Source of the DNA: Papaver somniferum
Lineage: Eukaryota; Streptophyta; Magnoliopsida; Ranunculales; Papaveraceae
Direction: 5' to 3'
DNA: 64,000 nt
NCBI RefSeq assembly: GCF_003573695.1
Contig: NC_039368.1
Location: forward strand, 78,072,374-78,136,373
Positions 15,431 through 44,321 of this stretch are shown here, piece by piece. Position 1 is the first letter of the stretch; the number at the start of each line of letters is the position of its first letter. The position numbers and the translations under genes are program-made. The notes beneath the pieces are model-generated. The model was not told the DNA's origin. It saw only the letters and a list, made by a program, of their open reading frames with translations, and did no database searches.

Positions 15431-18400
15431 CTAACACTGAGTACTCTTACGGCAATTAAGAGCACCAGCACCTGAAGTAATGGAACCAACCATGGATGAA
15501 GATTTGGCCCCAAGACTTGAAGCTCTGGCATAGCTGGCGGAGACTCCTTTTCCTGATGGTGTAAAAAAGGCTCCATTCAGTAGCAAATCTCCTTCAGATC
15601 TCCAGTTCCAGTGCTTCCATCTACCAGAATCTGTTTCGACTCTCTTTGTCACCTGCAACACCCATCCATGAAAATTGATCAGTTGGAGTTAAATCACCCC
15701 AAAGGGTGAAAAGATGGTGACTAGAGAGTCAGAGAGAGCGAGTTTTGTAACCTCTTTGGCAAAAGGGTTGGCTGGGGCAAGGAATCGGTTGCCTTGGCTG
15801 TTGATGGTGGGATCTGCACTTCCACCAATAGCATACATTTCCCAGTGAGTATAGTCATTGTTCACTACATGGAAGTATCCATGTCTGCACCTGAAAATAT
15901 AAATCCATGAACCACATTGACCAAAACTGTATATATAGATTATAAAGCAAAAAGATAAGTCTTTTCATTTTCTTACCTTGGCATCCTTTGCCTGAGACCC
16001 TCACCAAAATGATTGAATGCAATGGTTACTTGCATTACCTTGTCTCTGGTATACGAGTCGTCATGACCCAGCAGCATCACCTATTGACATTTGAAATATT
16101 GGTTGGTTAACTAACAGAATGGATGATATAAAACAAATTCCGTTTAGTTGTGTTATTTACCTCATTGTGGTGAGTGAAGTAATTGTTAGAGATAGTGATG
16201 GCAGTGGAAGCCATGATAGCATCAATAAGACCATCAGCACAGTTGGAGAGTGAGTTGTGATCAACCCAGATATGGCTAGATCCAGAAATGGAGATACCAT
16301 CACCATCAGACAATGATCTATATTCGTAGTGAGACGGGGAGTCTAGAACCAAAGCATTACCAGTGGGTTTACAGTCGTGGATGTGGATTCCATGAATGAT
16401 AACATTGGTTATGTACTGAATAGTGATGCAAGCTCCATTTGCGATATGAACATTGACACCACGGCCATCAATGGTCTTGAAACTATTCATGATAAGCTCT
16501 TGTTTGAGAGTGATGACCATGTCACGCTTGAACACAATCCAAAGTGGTTTGTCCTGAATGACTGCATGACGCAGGGTTCCTGGTTTGGGATTCACAGCGT
16601 CGTGATCACTTGGGTCAGTGACGACATAGTAATCTCCATCTCGACCACCAAGAGCTTTACGCCCAAAACCGATACCACAGTCTGCAAGACGCTTCCTGTT
16701 TTTGTGCCAGTCTTTGTCACAGCGCCAGCAATCATCAATTGGATTGCCACTTCCACATGAGAAATACCCGCCCAGGTTCCTCCTTTCAGTACTATTACGT
16801 ATAGTCCTGTTCATTCAGAATCAATTAATTCAGGTTATCATCCAAATGGCTTAAATTTTAAGTCAAAGGCTACAAAGTAGTCAAAATTCGCTCTCTAAAT
16901 TTTAAGTCAAAATTTTAGTTGGGTCAACTCGAGTAACTGCAGAGGTCAAGTTTTTCTTACTGTTCTTCAACCTTCACATAATCAAAGTTCACTTTTCATG
17001 TCACGTTGATCGCAGTAAATGTAGAGGCGGTGTGGGGTGAAATTAAGTGTCGGTGAGGTACTACCCCTATCTATCTACCTAAGAAGTTGGCAAGAAGTGT
17101 TTAATTTGAAGGGAGGAAACAAAATAAATGCTAGGGGTAAAAGAAAGAAAAAGTACATTAAATGAAATAGGTTAGATATAAATGCTAGGGATTGCTTTTT
17201 TTTTTTTAAGCAGTAGAGGGCTTAATGGCTGGTCAATATTTTGTCGGTATGGTCAACTTACATAATAGAATAATTTATCTTTAAAGTTCCGAATCAGAGA
17301 AAGATAATATAAAAAATTAATCGATTCTAAAACGTTTTAGAGCTAACACTCCCTCGATTTGTTGCAATTTAAGATTAACTTAGAAAAGTAACAATGTGAT
17401 CATTTAAGTGGACGACTTTACGAAGAAGAGCAGCAACCTGTTTATACACAATCTGAGTGAGAAAAGACAAAGGAATTGAGTTGATATCCGATTATGGAAT
17501 GGAACCCATGTCAAACGTAATTACTACTAAGCTGGGAATCACGGACATTGACACAGGACACGGACACGACATGGACACAGATACTGGCAAAAATCCAAAA
17601 TCATCATGATACGGACACGTCTATAAATATATCAATAAAATGGTTCTTATATATTGCAAATACATGGAAAAAACTTAATTTTATGCTGTTAGTTTAGCTC
17701 ACACGTAGAAAAATTAATTATTATAGTGATTTTTTGACATAATAGGTTACCAAACTACTAAAATGGAGAATACATTTCTGGACGTGTGTCGACACTGGGG
17801 ACATGGGGAACCACGTGCTCTTGTGTTCAGAGTCTGGAGTCTATCACATGCACTCTCACTATTACGTACAAGACAATAAACGAGCAACCCCTGTTTCTAT
17901 GAAAGCCACCACCTTTTCAGAATAATGCATCCTAAGTTCCTAACCATTAACTTGCTGCAGTGCAGAACTCCAGTCCTACTCCCAAAAGTACTTTATCTTT
18001 TTTCTGGTGACTATTAGTTTCATAAACCATGTTTCTTATTCTTCAGATGATTTGTAACTAAACAGTCAAGTTGATGACCATTAGGCACTATAAAGTACTA
18101 CAAAAGTGTGGTGCCTCCATTGTTTAGTTTGTTTCTTTTACGTTTTAAACGATTGTCAAGCAGGGATCATCATTAAAAGTAAAGGTAACAATCCACCATG
18201 TGATCATATTAGCCAAATTTGGTTTTTGTGATTTTTTAGAAAAGGGATACACTTACGTAGCTACTTGGGAAGCAACTTCATCAGGATCAGCTACTGCATG
18301 TTCATGGGTCCACTCCTCCTCTGGCCTGAAAAAATTTAATAAAATTCGCAAGATAAGAACACGGTTTAACTTTTAATTGTTTATAGATTTTTTTATGAAA

Positions 18401-19253
18401 ACAAAAGATGAATCAAACCCATGTTCTTTTCCTGATGGATTGTTTCAGGTGAGCGTTTGGCATTTTCTATACCTGACAAATTTTCCTAGTATATGGATCA
18501 AAAACAAAAACAGGGTTTTGGTTTTTGTTACAGAAACAATCAAGACTCGACGGAGATTCGTACACTGCACAAGACTGTACAAAACGGAGTAAATTAAGTG
18601 AATGAACGTCTAAAAAGAATTTGTTTGCAGAGACAAAAATGATAAAGAAAACCTTAAACTGTTTAAATCCCCGCATTAATAAGATTTTGGAGGTACAAAC
18701 ATCTATTCTCTACGGCCATAAGGAAGGTGAGATTTCGGAAGGACGATTTTGTGAGCGAAAAGTTAATGCTGTTCTTCTAGGAATTTTTTCGGATCAAGCC
18801 GTAACATCAATGGACGTTTTGGATCTGTCGATTCTTATTAGAAGAACAGTTTAATCTAGTAACTCTACCTTAAATCCGCCATTGTTGTTGTGTTTATTGT
18901 GGAGCTCTGTAATTGCTTTGTTTGTTGTTGAATCCTTAACAGAAACAAAAACGTAGAAATAAATCAGTACAAAAACATGAGCAAATAACCAAAATCTCAC
19001 AAAAACAGAGCTTCCATTTTCACACTCTGAGCAAAAACCTCTGCTATTGGAGTAAATTAAAGTTACATGTAGAGAGGAAAAGCAGTTGTTCTTCTTCTGC
19101 ATTTACTCACTCTTTTTTGTGTAGAAAAAGAAAAACAGAATTATACCTCAAATCAGAGTTCTCCTTTTTCTCTACTTGATCAGCCATTATCAGTATAACA
19201 AACAGTAATAGAGTAACCAGACATAAGCTTAAACACCTCAAAGAAACCGCCAT
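15431..19253 (-). CDS. Pectate lyase (polysaccharide lyase family 1), intact copy
   Basis: Six exons on the minus strand: 19147-19253, 18257-18325, 16161-16806, 15977-16080, 15752-15890 and 15431-15652. They splice at GT-AG sites into 1287 nt, 428 aa. The product is a secreted enzyme that cleaves demethylated pectin in the cell wall by beta-elimination. Residues 1-24 form a hydrophobic signal peptide (MAVSLRCLSLCLVTLLLFVI). The family landmarks are present: CWRCD, the WVDHNSLSNCADGLID calcium-site block at about 239-254 (Asp241, Asp250, Asp254), HDDSYTRDK, and the catalytic arginine block RQRMPRCR at 304-311. The cysteine-bearing end NCRKSTQC is intact. Length and order are normal for plant pectate lyase-like proteins. 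The gene converges on REM-1 (15431 against 14929) and is head-to-head with REM-2, about 2 kb apart. Confidence 0.93.
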
Positions 19254-43100: not shown

Positions 43101-43446
43101 CATACTTTTTGCATGATTCGTTCAATTAATTTGCCATGTGTTTTCTGGTGTACCCTATAAATAAAAAAAATTCCTTCTTGTGCAGCATGTTCCTTGCGGC
43201 TTTGCCAAGGAACATCCACGGAAGAAGGCCAAAGCTATCATGGTTCGAAATTCAGAGGATAAAGTGTGGACCTTTGGCTACTTTATAAAGGTAATGTAAC
43301 ACATATCCTCTGGTTGGACTTCTCTTAGACGAGATTTAGGTCGGACAGAAGGCGATATTTGTGTTTTTGAGCTGCTTAAAGAAAAGGATATAGAAATGAG
43401 AGTTTCTGTTTTAAGGGAGATAGACAATCTGCTCACCAGGATTTGA
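40180..43446 (+). pseudogene. REM-2 B3-domain pseudogene, block C copy
   Basis: Same five-exon plan and the same shared lesions as the A and B copies: the exon 3 stop, the loss in the second B3 domain, the stop after LSKRV and the exon 5 frameshift. Exon 2 keeps the intact reading seen in A. Small private indels occur near 40,970 and 43,288. Confidence 0.88.
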
Positions 43447-44321
43447 TCGGGGTTCAAAAGTGCATCTGACTGCATATGAGTGCATTTGATCAAAACTATC
43501 TAAACTCTTAGTGATGGCTGTAACTTCTGACTATACTCATAGCTTTGTCATATTTTTACTGCCTTTACTTAAGGTGAATTTACTTCTACTTTGCTCTAGT
43601 TCTCTATGGTCTTTCATCTCACACCTCGTGTCTGGACTAATTCCTAAATCTAGTAACCTGTTTGATTTAGTCCTATCCTTGATTTAATTCATTTTATCCT
43701 TTCCCTTGCAGTGTGTTTTTATATTCTGTCCTGAATTTAGTTCTCCTGAATATTTTGTGTGATTTTTCTCAAGTCTGTTCTTTCTTTGTGCTAATTTCTC
43801 TGTTTCTCTAGGCCCATCACACTGGTTTCTATTTGGGCCCTGGTCACGGTTTAGGTCTTTCTTCCGTTGGACATTCCAAATATGAAAATATTAGTTTTGA
43901 ATGTCCAGGTCATTGGACCCCTGTTACTCGTGATCCCTTAAATTACCTGCGACAATACCACAAACTAGATATTGTAATCTTGTACGACATCTGGTAGCCC
44001 AAATTCACAAGAGGTTCTCACATATATATATGCCAACCAACAGAAAATTTGCCTCCACTAAAATGGTCAATCTGTACATAAGTACCAATGAGAACCTAAC
44101 ACCAGCAAAAAAATCTAGGAACTCCTCTCTTCTATATAAAAACAGGAAGGAGAATTTCGAACCACTTCTCCAAAAATATTATAATACTTTACAAGGTTGG
44201 AAATCAAAGTTGTTATGTTAGGGAGGCATTCTTCGAGCTTATCCAACATATCAGATGCAAATGTTGGATAAATTAGATAAAATTCAGAAAAAAAATTGGT
44301 GGAAAAAAGATGAGTCAAAAG

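What the first reader, a model, noticed from the sequence alone, without database searches (positions are those of the whole stretch)
15954..44308. Threefold tandem amplification of a 9.45-kb block with LINE and intron breakpoints
Three near-identical blocks (9463, 9441 and 9451 bp) are joined head to tail. Each junction fuses a LINE fragment to pectate lyase intron 4 across the short shared sequence AAAAAGA. Only the outer flanks show the ancestral state: lyase exons 5-6 on the left, the rest of the LINE on the right. This points to one microhomology-mediated duplication followed by unequal crossing over, and it is recent because the blocks barely differ.
Basis: partly seen in the sequence, partly recalled or inferred. 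Interest (0 to 1): 0.75.

Follow-up and report, generated by a model that had tools for sequence, protein, structure and literature searches.

The report
Recent tandem triplication in opium poppy
In the opium poppy reference genome a 9.45-kb stretch holding a broken gene, part of a second gene and a scrap of old transposon was very recently copied into three in a row, apparently through an 8-letter sequence match right beside a jumping gene that may have broken the chromosome.

Summary
Confirmed. Three head-to-tail blocks (15949-25411, 25412-34852, 34853-44303; 9463/9441/9451 bp) lie on the 140.19-Mb chromosome of the Papaver somniferum assembly. Both internal junctions fuse an old LINE fragment to a pectate-lyase intron across AAAAAGAT (8 bp, not 7). 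The corresponding locus on the 204-Mb chromosome carries the same genes and LINE once, so the ancestral order is seen, not assumed. New here: the right breakpoint lies 2 bp from the 8-bp target-site duplication of a 967-bp hAT-like element with a captured ZIP-transporter exon. That element is absent from the corresponding site; a second copy sits elsewhere with its own 8-bp duplication. Of 23 differences between blocks, 21 are 1-4 bp losses in one copy and 2 are homopolymer-edge changes, unlike the divergence between the two chromosomes (176 substitutions: 28 gaps; Fisher 3e-14); I read them as consensus errors. The amplified B3-domain gene was already broken and the extra lyase copies are truncated, so no intact gene was gained. 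Copy number, the crossing-over step and the trigger remain unproved without reads.

The parts
15949..25411 (+). Block 1 (9463 bp)
25412..34852 (+). Block 2 (9441 bp)
34853..44303 (+). Block 3 (9451 bp)
15949..15961 (+). Left breakpoint in lyase intron: AAAAAGATAAGTC
25412..25424 (+). Junction 1, LINE to lyase intron
34853..34865 (+). Junction 2, LINE to lyase intron, same sequence as junction 1
44304..44316 (+). Right breakpoint in LINE: AAAAAGATGAGTC
44314..44321 (+). Target-site duplication GTCAAAAG, left copy
44322..45288 (.). 967-bp hAT-like Pack element, 12-bp terminal inverted repeats TAAGGGTGCACA
44518..44901 (-). Captured ZIP-transporter fragment inside the element (Pfam PF02535, E 2.9e-19)
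45289..45296 (+). Target-site duplication GTCAAAAG, right copy
44120..44313 (+). LINE fragment at the end of block 3 (start approximate, from the 25221 estimate in block 1)
   Evidence: position by offset
45289..46940 (+). Rest of the LINE outside the array (RNase H-like PF13456 at 46444-46842; end approximate)
15431..19253 (-). Pectate lyase, full set of seven exons, open frame of 450 codons, spanning left flank and block 1
25412..28714 (-). Truncated lyase copy in block 2, lacking the last two exons
34853..38157 (-). Truncated lyase copy in block 3, lacking the last two exons
21279..24552 (+). REM B, B3-domain pseudogene, block 1
30733..33993 (+). REM B pseudogene, block 2
40180..43446 (+). 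REM B pseudogene, block 3
12504..14929 (+). REM A, intact B3-domain paralogue just outside the array (528 aa model)

Best explanation
One microhomology-mediated rearrangement on the 140-Mb chromosome joined the LINE (44304-44311) to the lyase intron (15949-15956), making a 9.45-kb tandem duplication, which then grew to three copies, most simply by unequal exchange between the identical copies. The first break most likely arose at or beside the hAT-like element 2 bp from the right breakpoint. The left end of such a break, trimmed by about 10 nt, would expose AAAAAGATGAGTC, which can pair with AAAAAGATAAGTC in the lyase intron of the sister chromatid; copying rightward from there gives the observed structure, with the element kept only at the outer right edge. 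Shown: blocks, identical junctions, microhomology, single-copy order on the corresponding chromosome, element with target-site duplication, empty site there, shared pseudogene lesions, near absence of substitutions. Inferred: the double-strand break and its cause, template switching, the exchange step, and that the element was there before the duplication.
For: Blocks and junctions. Microhomology beyond chance. Ancestral single-copy order with uninterrupted LINE. Element, inverted repeats, 8-bp target-site duplication and a second copy with its own duplication. Published model of the same kind in kochia (break at a mobile-element boundary, 7-bp join): passages of PMC6808082.
Against: The element could have inserted after the duplication; nothing in the sequence fixes the order. 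The chance of an element end this near either breakpoint is about 0.5-1% under an assumed 8-16 transposon ends in the window (the number of ends is my rough count), and the test is post hoc. No excision footprint is seen. Copy number three rests on one assembly; the block differences avoid a 3158-bp stretch around the junctions (P 0.003), which I do not explain.
Confidence: 0.6

Rival explanations
1. Microhomology-mediated duplication after a break unrelated to the element; the hAT-like element landed beside the breakpoint by coincidence or because the site is fragile for both.
For: Same junction and microhomology; junctions hold no element sequence; insertion order not fixed.
Against: 2-bp distance; roughly 0.5-1% by chance under my assumed density.
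Confidence: 0.3
2. Three copies were made in one event by rolling-circle re-replication or repeated template switching, not by later unequal crossing over.
For: Identical junctions and near-identical blocks fit one event; re-replication with microhomology repair is proposed in maize (passages of PMC4270019).
Against: No positive mark of it; unequal exchange is a common fate of tandem repeats.
Confidence: 0.3
3. Assembly artefact: copy number, or the array itself, is wrong.
For: Deletion-only differences suggest poorly polished repeats; no reads examined.
Against: Junction has a biological microhomology signature and occurs twice identically; no N in the window or in 10 kb on each side; in the lyase-probe search (19 matches) and the junction-probe search (45 matches) no near-identical copy lay on another contig.
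Confidence: 0.1
4. Ac/Ds-type alternative (reversed-ends) transposition made the duplication.
For: A hAT-like element lies at one breakpoint.
Against: That reaction leaves element ends and target-site duplications at the duplication breakpoint (as described in passages of PMC4270019); the junctions here are LINE to intron with neither.
Confidence: 0.03

Closest known systems
Kochia scoparia EPSPS tandem array (PMC6808082; passages seen)
   Same: Tandem array in a plant; a proposed break at a mobile-element boundary repaired through a 7-bp match, copy number then changed by unequal exchange.
   Different: There the mobile element sits between repeats and the amplified gene is functional and selected; here the element is only at the outer edge and no intact gene is gained.
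Maize Ac alternative transposition and re-replication duplications (PMC3744419, PMC4270019; passages seen)
   Same: hAT-superfamily elements, tandem direct duplications, some joins with 3-9 bp microhomology.
   Different: Maize junctions keep element ends and target-site duplications; here they do not.
Pack-TYPE transposons, Pack-hAT (PMC8903248, PMC8277862; passages seen)
   Same: Non-autonomous element with inverted ends, 8-bp target-site duplication and captured gene exon, copied as a unit.
   Different: None found; its place at a duplication breakpoint is the point of interest.
Opium poppy tandem arrays of T6ODM, NISO and PR10-5 with duplicated flanking transposons (PMC7055283; passages seen)
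   Same: Tandem duplication in the same species, with transposons carried along.
   Different: Alkaloid-pathway genes; here a pseudogene and a truncated gene.

Membership tests
Microhomology-mediated tandem duplication | Head-to-tail copies with the same novel junction | tested here: met
Microhomology-mediated tandem duplication | Short shared sequence at the breakpoints, longer than chance, too short for ordinary homologous recombination | tested here: met
   8 bp exact, 12 of 13 extended; 0.024% of random pairs
Microhomology-mediated tandem duplication | Unduplicated ancestral state known | tested here: met
   C9 locus single-copy, same order
Microhomology-mediated tandem duplication | Junction supported by single molecules | not testable with these tools
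   no reads available
Pack-TYPE hAT element | Terminal inverted repeats and 8-bp target-site duplication | tested here: met
Pack-TYPE hAT element | Captured host gene fragment | tested here: met
   ZIP domain, Pfam E 2.9e-19; 10 of 42 scored genome matches cover only the captured part
Pack-TYPE hAT element | Moved as a unit | tested here: met
   second 967-bp copy on C5, 88%, own target-site duplication CTCTACAC
Pack-TYPE hAT element | Mobilised by a hAT transposase | not tested
   no autonomous partner was sought; superfamily assigned from inverted ends and 8-bp duplication (rule recalled)
Ac/Ds-type alternative transposition duplication | Element ends and target-site duplication at the duplication junction | tested here: not met
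   junction is LINE directly to intron, twice
Unequal crossing over between copies | Copy-number series in the population | not testable with these tools
   one assembly only

The most novel reading that the evidence does not exclude
A gene-capturing hAT element broke the chromosome; the trimmed left end switched template through 13 nearly identical bases into a lyase intron 9.45 kb upstream, seeding a tandem array whose internal junctions carry no transposon trace. If general, many 'transposon-free' plant tandem duplications with microhomology would be hidden DNA-transposon damage, recognisable only by an element within a few bases of one outer breakpoint.
Probability: 0.35. Interest if true: 0.55.

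Novelty: new member of a known kind. Interest (0 to 1): 0.38.

Why it matters
The corresponding chromosome preserves both the unduplicated order and the element-free LINE, so a very young plant tandem duplication can be read base by base against its ancestral state. It gives a concrete, testable instance of the idea that DNA-transposon breaks seed copy-number change without leaving transposon sequence in the junction. It also shows that an eye-catching recent amplification need not be adaptive: the amplified B3 gene was already broken.

Tried and rejected
Selection for gene dosage: rejected as the main reading. REM B carries the same frame-breaking changes and stop in all three blocks, the three lesion sequences that I looked for are absent from the 50 kb of C9 fetched, which has its own lesions, and only one lyase copy has all exons. 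At first I took the REM B truncation as shared with the C9 protein P0155 (note); one search showed different lesions, so I dropped that.

Block differences as real mutations: rejected. 23 places: block 1 has 1, block 2 has 11, block 3 has 11 (recount); all 21 length changes are losses in one copy against the other two, the other two are homopolymer-edge changes. Control: C9 against the window has 93:9 and 83:19 substitutions:gaps in the two segments used in the test, and 99:20, 187:33, 440:95 and 401:53 in the four computed but not used in it. Against a simple error story: the 23 places avoid a 3158-bp circular stretch around the junctions (P 0.003) and block 1 is nearly clean; I do not explain this.

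Recombination between long repeats as the first step: rejected, only 8 bp are shared exactly. Ac-type alternative transposition: rejected on the junction. Rfam scan of the window at gathering thresholds: 0 matches. A search of the held open-access library for Papaver somniferum + tandem duplication + pectate lyase listed one paper, a poplar study seen in the listing only; six paper searches in all, so absence from print is not claimed beyond them.

Lyase as a decaying gene: 4 of 192 columns conserved at 98% or more deviate, all between residues 235 and 255; 4 of the 120 compared proteins have as many or more. Suggestive only; the frame is open. No protein at 90% identity or more to it is among the 120 listed of 3995 (made with the six-exon model); unexplained.

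Full report
Identity. The window is G000:C11:78072374-78136373 of a 2.715-Gb assembly. C11 is 140,193,751 bp and C9 is 204,470,928 bp, the contig lengths attached to Papaver somniferum proteins in the protein searches. So this is the opium poppy assembly in the protein database; the match of REM A to a P. somniferum protein (100% over 93%) probably comes from the same assembly and is not independent evidence.

Observation. Self-comparison confirms three head-to-tail blocks of 9463, 9441 and 9451 bp. The two internal junctions are identical and read LINE ...GGAAAAAAGAT then AAGTCTTTTC... of the lyase intron. At the left outer edge the intron continues into the last two lyase exons; at the right outer edge the LINE continues. 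The shared word is AAAAAGAT, inside a 12-of-13 match. Among random position pairs of the window 0.024% share 8 or more bases. A junction-spanning probe gave 45 matches in the genome, of which two cover it in full, both in this array. A lyase probe gave 19 matches, of which three are near-identical, all in this array. Counts from this tool are lower bounds, by its own statement.

Ancestral state. C9:26.033-26.066 Mb carries the same order once: REM A, lyase, REM B (with insertions of its own), LINE. I take it as the homeolog from the poppy whole-genome duplication (dated 7.2 Mya in PMC8521590, passages); that is inference from synteny. The LINE is therefore older than the split. On C9 the LINE runs uninterrupted through the site of the element: the joined element flanks align to it across the insertion point. 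The lyase intron around the left breakpoint has diverged on C9, so the long microhomology is seen on C11 only.

The element. At 44322-45288 lies a 967-bp element with perfect 12-bp inverted ends, flanked by GTCAAAAG on both sides. It carries a ZIP-transporter fragment on the minus strand (Pfam 2.9e-19). A second 967-bp copy, 88% identical, lies on C5 with its own 8-bp duplication CTCTACAC. Of the 42 scored matches, one is the window's own, one the C5 copy, ten (nine on C1, one on C12173) cover only the captured part, and 30 cover only an end (28 the right, two the left); 40 of 1761 first-look candidates were scored. It fits a hAT-like Pack element; the superfamily is assigned from the 8-bp duplication and ends (rule recalled), no transposase was sought. 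The shared word at the right breakpoint ends at 44311; the target-site duplication begins at 44314.

What the blocks contain. REM A, outside the array, models as an intact 528-aa B3 protein. REM B, inside, has relative to REM A a 4-bp gain in exon 3, a 1-bp loss and a GAA-to-TAA stop in exon 4 and a 2-bp loss in exon 5, in all three blocks. The exon 3 and exon 4 lesion sequences are not on C9, where exon 5 aligns without gaps and other frame changes are present. So REM B on C11 was broken after the split and before the amplification. The lyase has an open frame of 450 codons over seven exons using block 1 and the left flank. Blocks 2 and 3 lack the last two exons; there the frame, if unspliced, meets a stop right after the last retained exon. 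The amplification multiplied no intact gene.

Differences between blocks. 23 places: 21 length changes, each a loss of 1-4 bp in one copy, and two homopolymer-edge changes. Divergence between the two chromosomes in the two segments tested has 176 substitutions to 28 gaps over 3682 aligned bases, against 2 to 21 between blocks: Fisher P 3.3e-14. I read the block differences as consensus errors in a repeat that could not be polished, so true divergence is near zero. On that reading the upper bound on age is about 31 thousand years (0 substitutions) to 65 thousand (2) when scaled to the C9 divergence and 7.2 My. With the rate 8.08e-9 of PMC8521590 it is about 13 to 27 thousand. Gene conversion between copies would make the true age greater.

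Mechanism. The structure needs one join from the LINE to the upstream intron through 8 exact bases (12 of 13), typical of microhomology-mediated repair or template switching, and one further step from two to three copies. If the element excised, its left flank would end ...AAAAAAGATGAGTCAAAAG; removal of about 10 nt exposes the matching word. This predicts the element at the outer right edge only, as seen. Insertion after the duplication would leave the same sequence, so the order is not proved. Under an assumed 8-16 transposon ends in the window, an end within 10 bp of either breakpoint has a chance of 0.5-1%, and the test is post hoc. A kochia study proposes the same kind of break and 7-bp join at a mobile-element boundary (PMC6808082, passages). 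Maize Ac events differ in keeping element ends at the junction (PMC4270019, passages).

Limits. No reads and no second accession were available. Fifteen genome searches did not complete; two of those requests were later answered unchanged, one region in a shortened form, three requests never. Copy number three rests on one assembly.

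Noticed in passing
44322-45288 and L019 (C5:129801664-129802630): Two 967-bp hAT-like Pack elements, 88% identical, sharing a captured ZIP-transporter exon and sitting at different sites with different 8-bp duplications; ZIP-like sequences clustered on C1 resemble the source.
   Followed up: partly
window 2-47 kb against C9:26.025-26.075 Mb: Divergence between the two chromosomes is uneven: 12-14% per kb at 2-6 kb, 8-11% at 7-13 kb, 8-12% at 16-20 kb, but 3-6% at 13-16 kb, 20-25 kb and in the LINE at 45-47 kb. Exchange between homeologs after the genome duplication is one reading.
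   Followed up: partly
49498-50169, 51429-51658, 56578-56805, 58232-59694: A third B3-gene copy (REM C) is split by a direct-repeat pair (49784-50169 / 58232-58627, 91%) that encloses a copia-like element with 98.7% identical 230-bp repeats: apparently nested LTR elements. Target-site duplications were not established.
   Followed up: partly
15431-19253: The lyase has an open frame, but 4 of 192 highly conserved columns deviate, all within residues 235-255, and no protein at 90% identity or more was among the 120 listed of 3995.
   Followed up: partly
15949-44303: The 23 block differences leave a 3158-bp circular stretch around the junctions free (P 0.003); not explained by uniform consensus error.
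   Followed up: partly
5886-6931 and 48351-49418: Inverted repeat pair at 75-78% identity; related DNA at C4:12.353-12.356 Mb; probably an old transposon, not identified.
   Followed up: no
   Followed up: no
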